A stretch of 64,000 nucleotides of DNA from Streptomyces tsukubensis (GTDB taxonomy: Bacteria; Actinomycetota; Actinomycetes; Streptomycetales; Streptomycetaceae). Below are positions 31,658 to 42,119 of the stretch, one piece after another (position 1 is the stretch's first letter; each line of letters starts with the position of its first letter). The position numbers and the translations under genes were made by a program. Location of the stretch: assembly GCF_009296025.1 (NCBI RefSeq), contig NZ_CP045178.1:1-64000 (forward strand), given 5' to 3'. A model generated the notes under the pieces. It saw nothing but the letters and a program-made list of their open reading frames with translations. It ran no database searches and had not been told where the DNA came from.

Positions 31658-32209
31658 GTGGGCCAGAACGCCGCCGCCTCGCAGCCCCCCGCCGAACACC
31701 ACGCGCCCGAGCAGGACCTGTCCGGGTTCGTCGGTAGCCACTTCATCTATACCTACGCCAACGGCTGGCAGTACGAGTGGTACGCGCGCAACGAGAAGGA
31801 ATGCGACTACCGCATCCACCACGGCCTGGTGGGCGGTCGCTGGGTGACCAGGCAGGCCGTATCCATCGTTCGGTTCTCGGACGGCCAGTACAAGGCCGAC
31901 TGGCACGAGCCCACCGGTACCTGTGTGAGCCTGCTCTTCGATCTCCCGCGCCGTCTGTTGCACGGCACTGTCTTCTTCCCGCAGTGGATCGGCGGGGAGG
32001 GCCGGCATCCCGAGAAGACAATCTGCTACCAGAACGAATTCACCGACGACATGCACCGATTCCGCGATGAGGGCCCCGCCTATCCGTACGTGGTCATCCC
32101 GGAATTCGCGAAGATCACTTATACGGAGCAGCGCGGGCGCGACAACGACACCGTCATCGATGCTGCTCCAGGACAGCTCCCCGACGGTTACGCGGACCGC
32201 ACCAACTGA
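31658..32209 (+). CDS. padC: Phenolic acid decarboxylase
   Basis: 183 aa from the GTG at 31658 (GAGAGGAG upstream). It has the PAD beta-barrel signature throughout: FIYTYANGWQYEWYARNE, DYRIHHGLVGGRWVTRQ, DWHEPTGTCVSLLFDLP, LHGTVFFPQWI and YPYVVIPEFAKITY. The paired Tyr residues, Arg and Glu of the active site are present. It decarboxylates p-coumaric, caffeic or ferulic acid to the 4-vinylphenol without a cofactor. It is encoded just before a tyrosine ammonia-lyase, which would supply coumarate. Confidence 0.92.
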   Translation: MGQNAAASQPPAEHHAPEQDLSGFVGSHFIYTYANGWQYEWYARNEKECDYRIHHGLVGGRWVTRQAVSIVRFSDGQYKADWHEPTGTCVSLLFDLPRRLLHGTVFFPQWIGGEGRHPEKTICYQNEFTDDMHRFRDEGPAYPYVVIPEFAKITYTEQRGRDNDTVIDAAPGQLPDGYADRTN

Positions 32210-32598
32210 TCCGAGCAACCGGCCCGAGCACTGACCTGGCCGAGCTCCGGACCGGCTCGATGGCCCTGCGGGGCCCCTGTACCCGGCCATCCCCCGATGC
32301 CCCGCGGAACAGAGAAAAACGCCCTCGCGGACGGCGATATCGCGCCGATATGCGCCTCCGCGCATCCTGTGTTGCCATTGACCACAGCAGGTCTTCTCTC
32401 AGGAGTGCGTACAACGTCGGCGTACGCGGCAGGTCAGGGCGCGTACGTGGCACGCGGGTGGCGGGTCCCGGACGGACCGCCCCCTCCCTGCGACTCCGAC
32501 TCCGCCGAGCCTCCTCCCGCGGCCGCGGCGGTGACCGCGAGACCTCGTCCCGCCCGAAAGCCCTCACCAAAGCTCTCACCGGAAGGGGCGGCGGAGCC
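32210..32598. other. Intergenic region
   Basis: About 390 bp between the decarboxylase and ammonia-lyase genes. The lyase frame is open through it, but the first good start is at 32599. No hairpin or operator was seen. Confidence 0.35.
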
Positions 32599-34119
32599 AT
32601 GCCGACCCATGACGCGTCACGTGCACTGCTCATTTCGCGAGAGGCGCTGGCACTCGCCCACCTCAAGACGGCGGCAGAACCCGTGGATATCCGCGTCAGT
32701 GCGGAGGTGCTGGACAGGGTGGCCGCCTGTCACACCTTCGCACGACGCCACATCGATGCGGGAAACGCGGTGTACGGGGCGTCCACGGGCTTCGGGCCCC
32801 TCGTCGATTTCAGGGGGAGGGACGAGACCCAGCAGCAGGCCGAGAACGCTCTGGCGCATCTGGGTGCCGGTCAGGGGCCCAACCTCGATGCGCCCCTCGT
32901 ACGGGCCACGATGCTGGCCCGCCTGTCGGTCCTGTGCCAGGGACGGTCGGGAGTGTCGACGGGCGTGGTTCAAGCATTGGCGGCGGCGCTCGGCAGCTCC
33001 TTCGCCCCGGCCGTGCCGTCCACCGGTTCGCTGGGAGCCAGCGGTGACCTGATTCCCCTCTCGTATGTCGCCCGCGCCCTCAAAGGTGACGGCGAAGCCT
33101 ACGCGGACGGCACCTTGATGCCCGCGGCGCGAGCACTGGCACATTGCGGGCTCACTCCGCTCGAACTCGACGAGAGAGAGGCCCTGGCACTCGTCAACGG
33201 CACGTCACTGACGGCTGCCGCCGTGGGCCTCGCGACCTTGTCAGTCGCCCGTTCGCTCACCGTCTCCGTTCTCCTCACGGCGTTGCTGTGCGACACACTG
33301 GGATGCTCCACGGAGTTCGCCTCCCCCGCCCTGCTGAGGCTCTACGCCCACCCGGACGCCGAACGTGTGGGCGCGGGACTGCGCGGACAACTGGAAGGCA
33401 TCAGGCCGGATGACGGCCGTTCCCTGCAGGAGCCGTACAGCGTTCGCTGCTCCCCTCAGCTGATCGGCGCCGTGGGGTCGACCATCGCCTACGCCGACCG
33501 CGTCACGCACGACAGCCTGAACAGCGTCACGGACAACCCGGTGTTCTTCGTCGAGGACGAATCGGTGATCCACGGCGGCAACTTCTTCGGGCAGTCCCTC
33601 GCCTTCGCAGGTGACCTGCTGTCGGTGGGCTCCGCTCAACTGGGCAATCTCGCCGAACGGCAGCTGGACGCGTTGGTGGACCCGCGGCGCAACGGTGGGC
33701 GGCCTCCCATGCTGTCGCCCGCCCCTGGCCAGCAGCACGCTCTGCAGGGGGTGCAGCTCGCCGCCACGGCGATGGTCGTGGAGATGCGGCGCGACACCGT
33801 GCCGGCCTCCGCGCAGAGCCTGCCGACCAACTGGCACAACCAGGATGTGGTACCGCTCGGGACCCACGCCGCCCTCACCGCCCTCCGGCAAGCCACGTCA
33901 CTGCGCCTGCTGCACGGTTCCCTCGCCGTCGCGCTGCGGCAGGCCGTGCACGTCGGCGAACGCGAGCTCACGGCTCCGGCCTGCGTCCGGCTCTACGAGC
34001 GACTCGCTGATGTCGTGGACCAGGTCGACACCGACCGGCCGCTGGGCCATGACGTACGTATGGCGGCCGATCTCCTGGACCGGATCGTGGACGAGGACGA
34101 CGGGCTCACCTCGCGATGA
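32599..34119 (+). CDS. Aromatic amino acid ammonia-lyase, predicted tyrosine-specific
   Basis: 506 aa. The MIO prosthetic-group triad is Ala147-Ser148-Gly149 in SLGASGDLIPLS. Tyr59 in VYGASTGFGP is the catalytic base. The residues at the aromatic-selectivity position are His87-Leu88 (ALAHLGAGQGP), the pair found in bacterial tyrosine ammonia-lyases; Phe or Ser-His would suggest PAL or HAL. NSVTDNPVFF, HGGNFFGQSLA and the QSLPTNWHNQDVVPLG block complete the active site. It deaminates tyrosine to p-coumarate. An aminomutase activity is possible but less likely given the neighbouring decarboxylase. The start has GGAG upstream. Confidence 0.88.
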   Translation: MPTHDASRALLISREALALAHLKTAAEPVDIRVSAEVLDRVAACHTFARRHIDAGNAVYGASTGFGPLVDFRGRDETQQQAENALAHLGAGQGPNLDAPLVRATMLARLSVLCQGRSGVSTGVVQALAAALGSSFAPAVPSTGSLGASGDLIPLSYVARALKGDGEAYADGTLMPAARALAHCGLTPLELDEREALALVNGTSLTAAAVGLATLSVARSLTVSVLLTALLCDTLGCSTEFASPALLRLYAHPDAERVGAGLRGQLEGIRPDDGRSLQEPYSVRCSPQLIGAVGSTIAYADRVTHDSLNSVTDNPVFFVEDESVIHGGNFFGQSLAFAGDLLSVGSAQLGNLAERQLDALVDPRRNGGRPPMLSPAPGQQHALQGVQLAATAMVVEMRRDTVPASAQSLPTNWHNQDVVPLGTHAALTALRQATSLRLLHGSLAVALRQAVHVGERELTAPACVRLYERLADVVDQVDTDRPLGHDVRMAADLLDRIVDEDDGLTSR

Positions 34120-34172
34120 CCCGTCGGCCCGGCACCCACTTCACCAACGATCGGGGGTGAAGGAGAAGCGAG

Positions 34173-35138
34173 ATGGCAGCACGGACCCAGAGCGTACGGT
34201 GTCACCAAGTGGCCGCTGCCCCACGTACGGGACGGGTGGAGAATCTCCTCCTCACCCCGTCCGGGGAGAACGACCTGCGGTGCGGCTCACCTGCCGCCTG
34301 TGACCAGCCGGCTCGCGACGATCTCATCCTGCTCAGGCAGGCCGCCACCGGGACTCCTCCGGTTCGGCTGCTGGCGCCGGGTGAACCCGACGCGCGTATC
34401 CGTTACCGGTGGGCAGTCGGCCACCACGCGGCTTTCGGGGTATGGCGGCTGCTCGCCGCACGGTTGCGCACCATCGCCGATACGGCCAGCCCCGCCGGAA
34501 GCGCCATCACCGAGGCCGCGCGGCTGTACGACGTGTACTCCGTCCTCTTCCTCTACACGAGCAGTTGTTCACCCGAGCGGTACGACGCCACCGTCCGCGC
34601 CGACATGATCGCCTGCGACCCTGCGTTCAGCGGCACGTGGAGCCGCGACCACGAGGCCGTACCGGCGTTGATGCACAGGATGGACGAGGCGCACGACGCC
34701 GGTCTGACCAGAGAGATCAAGCGCGCCGCGCGGCTCAACGGCCAGATACACATGGCGGTGGCGAAGAAGCTTGTCCCCGAGGGGGTGTCACTGCTTCAGC
34801 AGGAGGGTGGTCCACCGCATCGGCCCGCATCGGCCGAGGGCGACCTGTATGACGAGTTCTTTCACGTGCGAAGGACCGCGACCTGTCGTTGCGCGTTCAG
34901 CGCTCAGATCCTCCGCCGTCTCACGCAGGTGGCGACCGACATGGCACACCACGGCCTGCACTCCTCCGACGATCCTCTGCCGGGGCTCGGCGTGAAGGCG
35001 GCCTCGGGTCTGCGGCGCATCGAGTCCAGTGCTCACCAGCAACTGCTTCACCTGGCCGCCCTGTTGGCTTCGGAGACCTGTCGGGCGGACACGGGACGCC
35101 GGGGCCACGCGGGGTCGTCCTTCTCCACCCACGTATGA
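34173..35138 (+). CDS. Putative heme-dependent tyrosine hydroxylase-like protein
   Basis: 321 aa, starting 53 nt after the ammonia-lyase with GAAGGAGA upstream. The sequence YRWAVGHHAAFGVWRLLAA, AARLYDVYSVLFLYTSSCSP and DPAFSGTWSRDHEAVPAL recalls the histidine-ligated heme aromatic oxygenases (LmbB2/Orf13 group) that hydroxylate tyrosine to DOPA. A cysteine pair (TATCRCAFS) is present near residue 233. The assignment is from memory of the family pattern and is tentative. If right, the locus could yield caffeate and vinylcatechol. The C-terminal region is helical. Confidence 0.45.
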   Translation: MAARTQSVRCHQVAAAPRTGRVENLLLTPSGENDLRCGSPAACDQPARDDLILLRQAATGTPPVRLLAPGEPDARIRYRWAVGHHAAFGVWRLLAARLRTIADTASPAGSAITEAARLYDVYSVLFLYTSSCSPERYDATVRADMIACDPAFSGTWSRDHEAVPALMHRMDEAHDAGLTREIKRAARLNGQIHMAVAKKLVPEGVSLLQQEGGPPHRPASAEGDLYDEFFHVRRTATCRCAFSAQILRRLTQVATDMAHHGLHSSDDPLPGLGVKAASGLRRIESSAHQQLLHLAALLASETCRADTGRRGHAGSSFSTHV

Positions 35139-35216: not shown

Positions 35217-36263
35217 TCAGCCGCGCACGACCCGTACGCCGGTGGCTCCCATCAGTCCGGCCAGGGGCACCTTCGCCGAGGTCTGGCCGGGATCGACCGT
35301 GAGCCCGTCACGGCGGATCAGGTCGAGCAGCCGTTCGGCGAGGGGCATGACCATGTGCCGCCCCCAACAGCGTTCCCCGACGTGGCCGAAGGGCAGGTAG
35401 CCGGGGTGGGTGTCGGGGTCGGCCGTCGCCCACCGCTCGGGCCTGAAGACGTCCGGGTCCTCCCAGTGGCTCGGGTCCCGGTGACTCAGCAGCGGGAGCA
35501 TGAGCACGTCGTCAGCGAGGCCGATCCGGTCGTCCAGGGCGGTGAACTCCGCGTCGGCGACCCGCAGCAGGTTCCAGGAGACGGGCAGCAGCCGCAGACT
35601 CTCCAGCAGGATGTGCTCGTTCGGGGTGTCGGTGGCGAAGGGTGCTCCCAGCCACAGCGCGTTGGTGACGAGCGCGGAGACGGTGAAGCACACGGGGGCG
35701 GCGGCCCGCCGGTACATGCCCATGGCGTGCCTGCGGCCCTCGTATCCGGTGGCCGAGGACACGAGACCGGCGAGCTCCGACAGAGGGGGCCGACCCGCGG
35801 GCGGTACGGGGAGGGTCGCGCCGGCCGCGATGACGCTCCAGGTGATTTTCGGCGTGAGTTCCAGGGTGCGGTCCACGAGCACGCGCAGCCGGTAGGGGTC
35901 GGCGCCGAAGACCAGGTCGCGAAGATAGCGATGGCCCACCTGTGGCCATTCCCCGGTGAGGTCCACCGGGGTGTCCGTCGGCGTTTTCAGGGCGGTCCGC
36001 ACATCCTGCCCGACGGCGCGCATGACGGCGGAGGCCTCGGGGCGGCCTATTTTCCTCCCCTGAAGCGGTTTGAATGTCGGTCGCTCGAATTCATTCGCGG
36101 GCCGGGCGGCGAGTACCGCGTTCATGAGGTCGGCGCCTGCGATTCCCACGGTGCTTTCGTCCAGCCGGAAAGCTTCGGCGCCCCTGTAACTCCGCAAAAG
36201 GTGTTCGATACGCGGGGCGAACACCGTTTCCCGGCGGAGCCGCTCTGTACCGGTCGTGCTCAT
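35217..36263 (-). CDS. Atropopeptide-modifying cytochrome P450 (tryptorubin type)
   Basis: 348 aa from the ATG at 36263 (GGGAGG upstream), short for a P450. The heme loop is FGHVGERCWGRHMVM with Cys near residue 299. The ExxR motif is in LLESLRLLP, and PERW appears before it as FRPERWATADP. A standard I-helix acid-Thr motif is not evident. It lies right behind the gene for a 26-residue precursor ending AWYIWY, the sequence of tryptorubin A, separated by a stem-loop. In the known tryptorubin pathway one P450 installs all C-C and C-N bridges among the Trp and Tyr side chains. The same role is inferred with high confidence. Confidence 0.9.
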   Translation of the reverse strand: MSTTGTERLRRETVFAPRIEHLLRSYRGAEAFRLDESTVGIAGADLMNAVLAARPANEFERPTFKPLQGRKIGRPEASAVMRAVGQDVRTALKTPTDTPVDLTGEWPQVGHRYLRDLVFGADPYRLRVLVDRTLELTPKITWSVIAAGATLPVPPAGRPPLSELAGLVSSATGYEGRRHAMGMYRRAAAPVCFTVSALVTNALWLGAPFATDTPNEHILLESLRLLPVSWNLLRVADAEFTALDDRIGLADDVLMLPLLSHRDPSHWEDPDVFRPERWATADPDTHPGYLPFGHVGERCWGRHMVMPLAERLLDLIRRDGLTVDPGQTSAKVPLAGLMGATGVRVVRG

Positions 36264-36297
36264 CAGCGCCTCCCAGGGCCCGAAGGATCGAAGTGGC

Positions 36298-36340
36298 GGG
36301 CGGTGGGCCGACGTACTGAAAGCACGTCGGCCCACCGCCC
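36298..36340 (-). terminator. 17-bp perfect stem-loop between precursor and P450 genes
   Basis: GGGCGGTGGGCCGACGT (36298-36314) is exactly complementary to 36324-36340, with a 9-nt loop. It begins 31 nt after the precursor stop and ends 34 nt before the P450 start. In RiPP operons such hairpins act as partial terminators or 3' stabilisers, giving much more precursor than enzyme. Confidence 0.8.
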
Positions 36341-36371
36341 GGTTCACCGGCACGATTCGCCGGTGGCCCCG

Positions 36372-36452
36372 TCAGTACCAGATGTACCAGGCATACGCCT
36401 TGAGGCTTTTTTCGGGCGCGATCTTCTTCTTCAGGGAGCTGAGGAGCTTCAT
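36372..36452 (-). CDS. Atropopeptide (tryptorubin-type) precursor peptide
   Basis: 26 aa, too short for usual gene callers. The ATG at 36452 has GGAGGT six nt upstream, and the stop TGA is at 36374-36372. The leader is MKLLSSLKKKIAPEKSLKAY, with a hydrophobic start and a lysine-rich middle. The C-terminal six residues are Ala-Trp-Tyr-Ile-Trp-Tyr, the peptide sequence of tryptorubin A; tryptorubin B lacks the Ala. The core sits at the extreme C-terminus, so only leader removal is needed after P450 cross-linking. The next gene downstream is a P450 of matching type; a subtilase is encoded upstream on the same strand and could trim the leader. Producer-strain identity is not proven. Confidence 0.95.
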   Translation of the reverse strand: MKLLSSLKKKIAPEKSLKAYAWYIWY

Positions 36453-36769
36453 GGCCGTACCTCCGATGCGAATGAACCGCTGAATCCTTTTCGTGCGCAG
36501 CAGGGGTGCGTGATCTCAACCCCGGCCGCCGAAAGTGAATCCGGAGGCTCCCGCGAGTGTCAACATGACGCAACTCACCGAGAGTTCGGGATTAGGCGGG
36601 GCCGGATTGGTGAATCACGTCGAACCGCCCAAATGCCTCGTTCCTGCGGGCCGGTTGCCCATGGATCAGCCGAGGTACTCCGGTGACCACGGAATACTCC
36701 GGTAAAGCCTGCGTCGACAACACCCCAAGACGTATGGCGGCAGGACACGCCCTTCCGTCGCGGGTGGTT
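36453..36769. other. Upstream region of the precursor gene
   Basis: About 320 bp between the subtilase stop and the precursor start, presumed to carry the precursor promoter. GGAGGT is the ribosome site. ACTCCGGT occurs twice (near 36668 and 36698). No other feature was seen. Confidence 0.4.
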
Positions 36770-37978
36770 TCAGAGTTGGCCGACATACAGGAGCCGGTCG
36801 GGAGAGCCCGCGCCGGGTGAGACGACGGCGCCGGTGGTGGCCCTGTCGGTGAGAAGGCGGGTGATGGTCGCGGGAGTGGCGCCGGGGTCCTGCTCCAGAA
36901 GGAGAGCGGCGCCGCCTGCCGCGTGGGGGCTGGCCATGGAGGTGCCGCTGAGGGAGCGGGAGCCGCCGCCGAGCCCGGCGGAGACGATGTCGACACCCGG
37001 CGCGTACAGCTTCAGACACGGCCCGTAGTTGCTGAAGTCGGCCTGGCGGTCCTGCCGGTCGGTGGCCCCGACGGCCAGAGCCTTCTGCGCGCGGGCGGGA
37101 GAAGCGGTACAGGCGTCCACGGCGTCGTTGCCGGCCGCGACGACGGGGAGGGCCCCGGCGTCCGCGACGGCGTTGGTGGCGGTGTCCAGCGTGGCGGAAG
37201 CCGAATCGCCGATGGAGGCGTTCATGACGGCAGGCCGCTTGAGGTGGGTGGCGATCCAGTCGAGGCCGGCGAGGGTCTGGGCCGTGGTGCCGCTGCCGGT
37301 GCAGTCCAGTACGCGTACGGCGACGAGGGAGACACCCTTGGCCACACCGTAGGTCTTCCCGCCGACCGTTCCCGCGACATGAGTGCCGTGGGAGTGGCAG
37401 TCCTGGCCGTCGCGGCCGTCTCCGATCGCGTCGAATCCCACGGTGGCGCGGCCCTCGAACTCGGCGTGGCCGGTCTCGATCCCGGTGTCCAGGACGTACG
37501 CGGTCACACCACGTCCTGTCCCGGTCACGGCGAAACGGCCGTCGAGGGGGAGGCGGCGCTGGTCGATACGGTCCAGCCCCCAGCTCCCCGCGGCCACCTC
37601 ACTAGCGGCCGTCGGTGTCCTTCCGCGCCCGCCGGCACCGTCCGCCGGTGCGCTGTTGAGGGTGACCCGGCCGTTCTCCTCGATGGCTGATACGGCGGGT
37701 TGAGTGCGGGCCAGTCGCAGCTGGAGTGGGGTGAGGGCGGCGGCGAACCCGTGCAGGGCCGTGCTGTAGGTGAACAGCGGTCTGATGTCCAGTTTCCGCA
37801 TGAGCGCCTTCGGCGCGAACGAGGGCTTGACCGTGACGATGTACTCACCCGCCACCGCCTTCGCCGCGTGCTGCGTGACCACGGCGTCCGGGCCGGGAGC
37901 GGCCACCGCGCCCGATCCGCCCAACATCGGTAGCACCATCAGAAGAACAGACGCCGCCCCGCGCATACTTACCCGCAT
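36770..37978 (-). CDS. Secreted subtilisin-like serine protease (S8)
   Basis: 402 aa. A signal peptide spans about residues 1-27 (VLLMVLPMLGGSGAVAA). An inhibitor I9 propeptide follows (AGEYIVTVKP...LHGFAAALTPLQLRLA). The catalytic triad is Asp164 (YVLDTGIETGH), His197 (CHSHGTHVAGT) and Ser347 (SGTSMASPHAAG), with the oxyanion Asn in PVVAAGNDAV. This is a proteinase K/aqualysin-type exoenzyme. It lies upstream of the atropopeptide precursor on the same strand; a role in leader trimming is possible but unproven, because such proteases are common housekeeping exoenzymes. Confidence 0.92.
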   Translation of the reverse strand: MRVSMRGAASVLLMVLPMLGGSGAVAAPGPDAVVTQHAAKAVAGEYIVTVKPSFAPKALMRKLDIRPLFTYSTALHGFAAALTPLQLRLARTQPAVSAIEENGRVTLNSAPADGAGGRGRTPTAASEVAAGSWGLDRIDQRRLPLDGRFAVTGTGRGVTAYVLDTGIETGHAEFEGRATVGFDAIGDGRDGQDCHSHGTHVAGTVGGKTYGVAKGVSLVAVRVLDCTGSGTTAQTLAGLDWIATHLKRPAVMNASIGDSASATLDTATNAVADAGALPVVAAGNDAVDACTASPARAQKALAVGATDRQDRQADFSNYGPCLKLYAPGVDIVSAGLGGGSRSLSGTSMASPHAAGGAALLLEQDPGATPATITRLLTDRATTGAVVSPGAGSPDRLLYVGQL

Positions 37979-40818: not shown

Positions 40819-42054
40819 TCAGCAGGGGCCGTCGTCCTGCCAGGCACCCCACTCGCCGGTGGTGCCCGGCTTCTCGCCCGTGGTCCACCACTTCGCCTCC
40901 CAGGCGTGGCCGTCCTGGGTCACCCGGTCGCCCTTGACGTAGACCGCCGAGGCGCTCCAGGCGGTCGTCGGGCAGGTGCCGCCGGGGTCGGTGGGCGGAT
41001 CGGTCGGCGGGTCCGTGGGCGGGTCCGTGGGCGGGGTCGCTCCGGCGAACCTCACTGAGAACTTGGCGAAGTCCCAGGCCGACTGGGGCACACTGCTGCA
41101 GGTGCCTGAGGTACGGCCGTTGTTGTCGGGCGGGTCGCACTGCCTGTCACGGTTGAGCGACCAGAAGGTGAAGCGGTCCATGCCGTGCGAGGTGGCGTAG
41201 TCGAGGACGGTCTGGAAGTCGGTCTGGCTGAAGAACTCCCCGGTGTCGCTGCGGCCGTTCATCCCCGAGAAGCCCTCGTGAGCGTAGGCGGTGGCCTCGC
41301 TCCAGCCGAAGGTCGAGCGCAGCACGCCGTTGAAGGCGGTGAGCGCCGCGGTCTGGGCGGCCGCTCCGCTGAAGCCGCCGTCAAAGGGCATGATGGAGAA
41401 GTTGTTGGGCGTGAGGCCCTGTGCCTTGGCCTCGTTGAGCATCTGCTTGCCGAACCAGCCGGTCCCGTCGGCGGTTCCGGCTGTGGTCACTGAGACGTAC
41501 AGCCCCGGGTTCTTCTGCTGGAGGATCTTGGCGGCGCCGATCTCGCGGGCGATCGCTGCCGTGTTCTCGTACTCCGGTTCCTCCAGGTCGAAATCGATCG
41601 CCTTGAGCCCGTACTTGTCGATGACCTGCTGGTACGCGGCGGCCGTGGAGGCGGCGTCGGAGCAGGCCTGGCCGAGTTTGGTTCCGCCGTAGCCGCCGAT
41701 GGAGACGGAGACGTCCCCGCCCTTGGCGCGGATCGCGCTGATGACGGAGCCGACGGCGGTGTCCGAGGAGACGGGCGCCGTCCCGTCCCAGGTCGGGCTG
41801 CATCCGCCGCCATTGGGGGCGAGGATGAAGGCGAGTTGGAAGGCCTTCAGCCCGGAGGCATCCATGATCGCGGTGGCGCTCGGCGGGTCGTTGTCGAGCG
41901 GCATGAGGTACGGGGCGGCCGCGTACCAACGGTTGCTCAGCGCGGCCGTGGAGCTTTCGGCCCCGGACGCGGAGGAGGGAAGGAGTGCGGTGAGCCCGGC
42001 TGCCGCGACGGCCGTGGACGCGGCGGCGCAGAGCAGGGCACGAAGACGTCTCAT
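40819..42054 (-). CDS. Secreted GH18 chitinase with CBM5/12
   Basis: 411 aa from ATG 42054. A signal peptide covers about residues 1-32 (LLCAAASTAVAAAGLTALL). The GH18 catalytic motif is AIDFDLEEPE (Asp154, Asp156, proton donor Glu158). A (TDPP)x4 linker follows at about residues 345-362, then a C-terminal chitin-binding CBM5/12 (WSASAVYVKGDRVTQDGHAWEAKWWT, W..G). The GH18 part resembles ChiC/chitinase-family D proteins with a Cys-rich end (CDPPDNNGRTSGTC). It degrades chitin for N-acetylglucosamine. A DasR-type site lies 66 bp upstream. Confidence 0.93.
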   Translation of the reverse strand: MRRLRALLCAAASTAVAAAGLTALLPSSASGAESSTAALSNRWYAAAPYLMPLDNDPPSATAIMDASGLKAFQLAFILAPNGGGCSPTWDGTAPVSSDTAVGSVISAIRAKGGDVSVSIGGYGGTKLGQACSDAASTAAAYQQVIDKYGLKAIDFDLEEPEYENTAAIAREIGAAKILQQKNPGLYVSVTTAGTADGTGWFGKQMLNEAKAQGLTPNNFSIMPFDGGFSGAAAQTAALTAFNGVLRSTFGWSEATAYAHEGFSGMNGRSDTGEFFSQTDFQTVLDYATSHGMDRFTFWSLNRDRQCDPPDNNGRTSGTCSSVPQSAWDFAKFSVRFAGATPPTDPPTDPPTDPPTDPGGTCPTTAWSASAVYVKGDRVTQDGHAWEAKWWTTGEKPGTTGEWGAWQDDGPC

Positions 42055-42119
42055 GAGGTCTCCCGAGGAGGTGAAGAGGCGCCTCACTTTCGCGCCGTTG
42101 TAGCGCACACGTCAACGGA

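What the first reader, a model, noticed from the sequence alone, without database searches (positions are those of the whole stretch)
35217..36452. Minimal atropopeptide (tryptorubin) RiPP locus with a 26-aa precursor
The unannotated 81-nt gene at 36372-36452 ends in Ala-Trp-Tyr-Ile-Trp-Tyr, the tryptorubin A sequence, and is followed by one short atypical P450. This is the whole known requirement for an atropopeptide with non-canonical bridge atropisomerism. The gene is below usual calling thresholds and would be missed.
Basis: partly seen in the sequence, partly recalled or inferred. Interest (0 to 1): 0.93.

Follow-up and report, generated by a model that had tools for sequence, protein, structure and literature searches.

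The report
Tryptorubin-type peptide genes in Streptomyces
A Streptomyces genome carries a two-gene set that most likely makes the already known cross-linked peptide tryptorubin; the family is well described, though a strong RNA hairpin between the two genes, shared by most relatives examined, may be a control element worth testing.

Summary
On the minus strand lie a 26-codon gene (36372-36452, MKLLSSLKKKIAPEKSLKAYAWYIWY) and, 108 nt downstream, a 348-aa cytochrome P450 (35217-36263). The small gene matches NCBI's curated tryptorubin-precursor model (56.2 bits, cut-off 33). The P450 has the usual length of its family and is up to 72% identical to named relatives; 79 of 80 related P450 loci carry a similar precursor upstream. 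This is an atropopeptide gene pair whose core predicts tryptorubin A/B. It is a known kind: 683 putative clusters are published, antiSMASH 8 has a rule, and 42 of 392 genomes sampled from the genus exceed the model's cut-off. It is a new member, on its own P450 branch, not a new system. One feature is not mentioned in the main text of the two atropopeptide papers that I searched: the gap between the genes holds an uninterrupted 21-bp hairpin. Strong hairpins recur in most relatives (61 of 80 gaps among the strongest 5% of their locus, 19 not; 15 of 70 ordinary co-directional gaps in actinobacterial loci), with some compensatory changes and no U-tail. It probably keeps precursor above enzyme, as suspected for lasso-peptide operons; this is inferred, not shown.

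The parts
36372..36452 (-). Atropopeptide precursor gene, 26 aa: leader MKLLSSLKKKIAPE, recognition motif KSLK, then AY, core AWYIWY
   Evidence: ORF; NF038372.1 56.2 bits, cut-off 33; single copy in genome
36460..36464 (-). Ribosome-binding site GGAGG of the precursor gene
   Evidence: sequence
36264..36371 (-). Precursor-P450 gap, strongly structured as RNA
   Evidence: MFE -74.4 kcal/mol, z -7.45, 0 of 200 shuffles as low; none of 251 blocks of the same length from both strands of the surrounding 14 kb has as strong a 60-nt fold
36297..36341 (-). Hairpin between the two genes: uninterrupted 21-bp stem (one G-U pair), 3-nt loop, no T-run after it
35217..36263 (-). Cytochrome P450, 348 aa, of the atropopeptide-crosslinking family
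   Evidence: PF00067 44.7 bits; 404 homologues at E 1e-3 among 7995 scored candidates, best named 72% identity over the full length; tree

Best explanation
This is a minimal atropopeptide (tryptorubin-type) gene pair. The 26-aa precursor is translated; its leader and KSLK motif guide it into the adjacent P450, which links Trp2, Tyr3 and Trp5 of AWYIWY by one C-C and two C-N bonds (expected loss of 4 H). Host proteases not encoded here remove the leader (tryptorubin A, [M+H]+ 897.393) and partly the alanine (tryptorubin B, 826.356). The hairpin between the genes probably lowers P450 expression relative to precursor, by partial termination, by protecting the 3' end of the precursor's mRNA, or by RNase III processing. 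Shown here: gene content, family membership, recurrence of the hairpin. From the literature: cross-linking chemistry, two-gene sufficiency. Inferred: expression in this strain, that the product is exactly tryptorubin, the -4H masses, and what the hairpin does.
For: Precursor over the curated cut-off. P450 homologues of the same length; S. laurentii P450 64%, A. xylanica P450 63% identical. 79 of 80 related P450 loci carry a precursor; of these 79, 20 end in AWYIWY and 63 hold exact KSLK. The -6H ions computed for AWYIWY and WYIWY (895.377, 824.340) equal the laurentirubin-related ions printed in PMC11450843, and that paper reports tryptorubin B from lauA plus lauB1, so a core of this composition with one such P450 suffices. 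Hairpin. A ribosome site inserted before svaB raised yield 100-fold, so P450 expression limits yield in a related pair.
Against: No expression or product data. The P450 pairs only with one unnamed relative (P0002, 81%) and is at most 72% identical to listed named ones, so bond positions could differ; SvaB makes two bridging patterns from one core. Hairpin: 19 of 80 gaps are not in the top 5% of their locus, and L043, L044, L077, L079 and L084 are unremarkable (34-88%); there is no U-tail (1 of 60 tails with 4 or more T in 8), against a canonical intrinsic terminator; the covariation term is near zero in one alignment.
Confidence: 0.93

Rival explanations
1. An atropopeptide pair whose product is not tryptorubin: same core sequence, but the divergent P450 sets different or fewer cross-links.
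For: Own P450 branch; ScaB makes mainly monocyclic products and SvaB two patterns.
Against: P450s only 59% identical (jum and amyxirubin) gave the same compound in PMC11450843; lauA with lauB1 gave tryptorubin B, and an S. laurentii P450, probably LauB1, is 64% identical to this one.
Confidence: 0.2
2. The pair is intact but silent or without function in this strain.
For: No transcript or product evidence; the window begins at base 1 of the 8.6-Mb contig, that is at a chromosome end.
Against: Both frames are open, ribosome sites are present, and the P450 aligns along its whole length with 29 relatives, heme region included.
Confidence: 0.15
3. For the hairpin: an ordinary transcript end; the P450 is transcribed from a promoter of its own.
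For: Convergent gaps, where transcripts end, are also hairpin-rich (13 of 25 in the top 5%).
Against: No U-tail; no sigma-70-like site in 36200-36800 (a weak test in Streptomyces); only 33 nt lie between the stem and the P450 start codon.
Confidence: 0.25
4. The subtilase gene upstream (36770-37978, same strand) is the dedicated leader protease of the cluster.
For: Same strand, 317 nt upstream; in four relatives of one clade a subtilase match begins about 430-480 nt after the P450 match.
Against: 4 of 80 loci only. Of 61 genomes searched (own included) 23 hold this subtilase type at E 1e-80; of the 8 others with the P450 only G019 does, and not beside it. It has a signal-peptide-like start, so it probably acts outside the cell.
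Confidence: 0.05

Closest known systems
trp gene pair (tryptorubin A; P450 WP_007820080.1)
   Same: Short precursor with KSLK and core AWYIWY (that tryptorubin A has this sequence is recalled; masses agree), one adjacent P450, two genes in all
   Different: The reference P450 itself was not compared here; this P450 lies apart from every named one in my tree
lau gene cluster, Streptomyces laurentii (LauA, LauB1, LauB2)
   Same: Core of the same composition by mass; P450 64% identical to an S. laurentii P450 (probably LauB1, not verified)
   Different: No second P450 next to this pair, so no extra aryl-ether bridge is expected
sva cluster, Streptomyces varsoviensis (L080)
   Same: Same two-gene layout; hairpin in the gap (rank 8 of 309 blocks)
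   Different: Core SWYQWL; P450 61% identical
Lasso-peptide operons (astexin-1, capistruin)
   Same: The gap between precursor and enzyme gene limits production: 'removal of the hairpin' is listed for astexin-1, and putting a strong ribosome site there raises yields (PMC7549694, PMC6092494, passages)
   Different: Unrelated enzymes and product

Membership tests
Atropopeptide (atropitide) RiPP family | Short precursor with KSLK or a listed variant between leader and core | tested here: met
   KSLK at residues 15-18; the published positions 17-20 probably count two alignment columns filled in few peptides (my inference from the legend)
Atropopeptide (atropitide) RiPP family | C-terminal core with Trp at position 2 | tested here: met
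   AWYIWY, stop directly after
Atropopeptide (atropitide) RiPP family | Precursor over the curated score of the family model NF038372.1 | tested here: met
   56.2 bits against 33
Atropopeptide (atropitide) RiPP family | Adjacent family-defining P450 | tested here: met
   Gap of 108 nt; of 80 related P450 loci, 79 have a precursor; tree
Atropopeptide (atropitide) RiPP family | Side-chain cross-links in one atropisomer | not testable with these tools
   needs product isolation
Tryptorubin A/B producers | Core AWYIWY with a single P450 | tested here: met
   composition agrees with masses in PMC11450843
Laurentirubin-type (second P450) | Second P450 gene beside the pair | tested here: not met
   Seven genes between 31658 and 42108 scanned: only the one P450
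Canonical intrinsic terminator (for the hairpin) | GC-rich stem followed by a T-run | tested here: not met
   0 sites in 36200-36800; 1 of 60 tails with 4 or more T in 8

The most novel reading that the evidence does not exclude
Atropopeptide gene pairs carry a conserved structured RNA element between precursor and P450, kept by compensatory change in Actinomycetota and present in Pseudomonadota while its sequence drifts, that sets the precursor-to-enzyme ratio without a U-tract. It would be a regulatory part of the family's layout and one reason why native clusters yield little.
Probability: 0.5. Interest if true: 0.42.

Novelty: new member of a known kind. Interest (0 to 1): 0.27.

Why it matters
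It adds one more predicted tryptorubin producer, on a P450 branch with no named close relative, useful for testing how far the enzyme can diverge and still make the same fold. The shared hairpin gives a testable reason for the low yield of native pairs and a simple engineering handle (replace the gap). Beyond that it is ordinary.

Tried and rejected
Subtilase as a cluster protease: rejected for lack of conserved linkage. Phenolic acid decarboxylase, ammonia-lyase-like gene, gene 34173-35138 and GH92 gene as cluster members: no tblastn match at E 1e-10 in the 80 related loci, which reach at most 6 kb to each side; the gene at 40819-42108 gave 5 loci, one of them a 48-residue piece. Hairpin as a canonical terminator: rejected. 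Hairpin as a known RNA family: no Rfam match at gathering score in 36200-36800. A solved structure of a close relative: none by sequence; best match 9ulw_A, 57.3 bits over 112 positions. Literature searches on precursor-gap hairpins: in the passages I read, only lasso-peptide precedents (one search returned no paper); most listed papers were not opened. Structure prediction was not run, because it would not separate the explanations left.

Weak points of the hairpin test: control genes were called by a crude codon-position GC rule, 539 genes and 127 gaps in 71 loci with a precursor gap in the comparison; the nine Pseudomonadota loci were left out of that control; loci are related, so the Fisher value (6e-11) is too small; with one locus per 80% P450 identity, 26 of 32 gaps are in the top 5%. 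L095 was dropped from the hairpin count because my pattern found no precursor. The n = 80 includes the window itself. For covariation I aligned 9 of the 14 gap sequences printed as group A, plus L030, and all 10 of group B; the 12 of groups C and D were not tested. In the tree L077 and L095 were dropped and eight P rows bore no core label, so the 14 changes of the AWYIWY label are too many.

Full report
Observation. On the minus strand an ATG-to-TGA reading frame at 36372-36452 encodes MKLLSSLKKKIAPEKSLKAYAWYIWY. A 348-aa cytochrome P450 begins 108 nt downstream and ends at 35217. Both have ribosome-site-like sequences, GGAGG and GGGAGG. The precursor matches NCBIfam NF038372.1 'tryptorubin family RiPP precursor' end to end at 56.2 bits against a cut-off of 33. 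The own genome (8.63 Mb, 2 contigs) has one copy.

What it is. The P450 gives 404 homologues at E 1e-3 among 7995 scored candidates; 120 are listed, 110 of them 343-354 aa long; the closest, P0002, is 81% identical but unnamed, the best named is 72%. The list includes a P450 of Amycolatopsis xylanica (63%) and one of S. laurentii (64%), two organisms with characterised atropopeptides. A scan of named genomes gave 135 related loci, of which the best 80 were kept. 79 of these 80 have a precursor of 19-40 aa just upstream; of the 79, 63 hold exact KSLK and 20 end in AWYIWY. One (L080) is the published S. varsoviensis sva cluster: contig accession and core SWYQWL agree with PMC11450843 (introduction and results read), a positive control.

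Place in the family. In a maximum-likelihood tree of 87 P450s the window's enzyme pairs only with P0002 (support 100/100); the placement of that pair beside a Pseudonocardiaceae/AWYGWI branch is weak (91/53). The AWYIWY label needs 14 changes, an overestimate because eight rows without a known core counted as unlabelled; still, several separate AWYIWY groups agree with the statement in PMC11450843 that tryptorubin cores fall into several clusters. Of 392 genomes drawn from the genus, own included, 44 have a precursor match at E 1e-3, 42 over the cut-off.

Product and mechanism. PMC11450843 describes the two-gene requirement, the leader-guided P450, the bridges and release by host proteases, and proposes KSLK as the anchor. 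It reports that lauA plus lauB1 gives tryptorubin B and prints 895.3760 and 824.3401 for the laurentirubin-related ions. My calculated -6H ions of AWYIWY and WYIWY are 895.377 and 824.340, so the LauA core has the composition of this one. Varsorubin B1, with three bonds, lost four protons; by analogy this locus, with no second P450, should stop at -4H: 897.393 and 826.356. That is a prediction. That tryptorubin A is Ala-Trp-Tyr-Ile-Trp-Tyr is recalled; no passage I read spells it out.

Surroundings. Upstream on the same strand lies a subtilase (36770-37978). Subtilases match near the P450 in 4 of 80 loci, all of one clade. The type is common: 23 of 61 genomes, own included; of the 8 other genomes with the P450, only G019 has one, and not beside it. 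The plus-strand genes on the other side, a phenolic acid decarboxylase, an aromatic amino acid ammonia-lyase and a gene without Pfam or NCBIfam match, have no match at E 1e-10 in the 80 loci. The pair is thus minimal, and its neighbours look incidental.

The gap hairpin. The 108-nt gap folds at -74.4 kcal/mol (z -7.45, 0 of 200 shuffles as low), with an uninterrupted 21-bp stem at 36297-36341. None of 251 blocks of equal length from the two strands of the locus has as strong a 60-nt fold. Across 80 loci (79 relatives and the window), 61 gaps are in the top 5% of their locus, 35 in the top 1%, and 60 have z below -2. In the 71 actinobacterial loci it is 54 of 71, against 15 of 70 other co-directional gaps, 13 of 25 convergent and 3 of 32 divergent gaps. 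In Pseudomonadota it is 7 of 9, and with one locus per 80% P450 identity 26 of 32. In two alignments of 10 gaps, 4 of 17 and 5 of 18 predicted pairs show double changes that keep the pair; the covariation term is slightly unfavourable in the first (+0.41) and slightly favourable in the second (-1.44), so this support is modest.

Results against the hairpin. 19 of 80 gaps are outside the top 5%: L043, L044 and L077 are plainly unremarkable (55-88%), L079 and L084 lie at 34%, L041 and L038 at 17-18%, the other 12 between 5% and 12%. There is no U-tail: 1 of 60 tails has 4 or more T in 8, mean T 18% against 14% in the gaps. There is no Rfam match. The words hairpin, terminator, stem-loop and intergenic do not occur in the main text of PMC11450843 or PMC12352619. 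A search for papers with both 'tryptorubin' and 'hairpin' listed two, which I did not open. Supplements and the founding 2022 paper, which is not held, were not seen, so I do not claim that the hairpin is unreported.

Reading of the hairpin. The likeliest role is to keep P450 expression low relative to precursor. In the sva pair a ribosome site inserted before the P450 raised yield 100-fold. In lasso-peptide work a strong ribosome site added in the precursor-enzyme gap raised almost all yields 1.8- to 84.5-fold (PMC6092494, passage), and one listed strategy is 'removal of the hairpin' (PMC7549694, passage). So this kind of element has precedents; here it is quantified for atropopeptides. How it acts (termination, 3'-end protection, RNase III) is not settled.

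Novelty. The family has 683 putative published clusters, an NCBI model and an antiSMASH 8 rule (PMC12230676, passage). The locus is a new member of a known kind. Interest is low to moderate, raised slightly by the hairpin.

Noticed in passing
window 31658-35138 (+): Phenolic acid decarboxylase, aromatic amino acid ammonia-lyase and a 321-aa gene without Pfam or NCBIfam match in a row: possibly a tyrosine-to-vinylphenol route. The third gene has no match at E 1e-30 in the other 60 genomes of the relatives search.
   Followed up: partly
window 36770-37978 (-): Subtilase with a signal-peptide-like start, 317 nt upstream of the precursor on the same strand; linkage not conserved.
   Followed up: yes
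L064, L074, L079, L082, L087, L088, L090, L096, L102, L105: In ten Streptomyces loci of one clade the gap holds GACATCGTTGTC, GACGTCGTTGTC or GACACCGTTGTC, which resembles a repressor operator as much as an RNA stem.
   Followed up: no
genome G358, C1:1966964 and C1:165562: Two separate tryptorubin-family precursor matches in one genome.
   Followed up: no
L077: Xanthomonas cucurbitae locus: the P450 frame stops after 105 codons although the precursor (core SWYIWY) is open; also one of the gaps without a strong hairpin.
   Followed up: no
L043, L044: Two Streptomyces loci (S. rimosus NRRL WC-3904 and strain CB02923, core AWYIWY) have a 49-nt gap and no strong hairpin: a natural control for what the hairpin does.
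   Followed up: no
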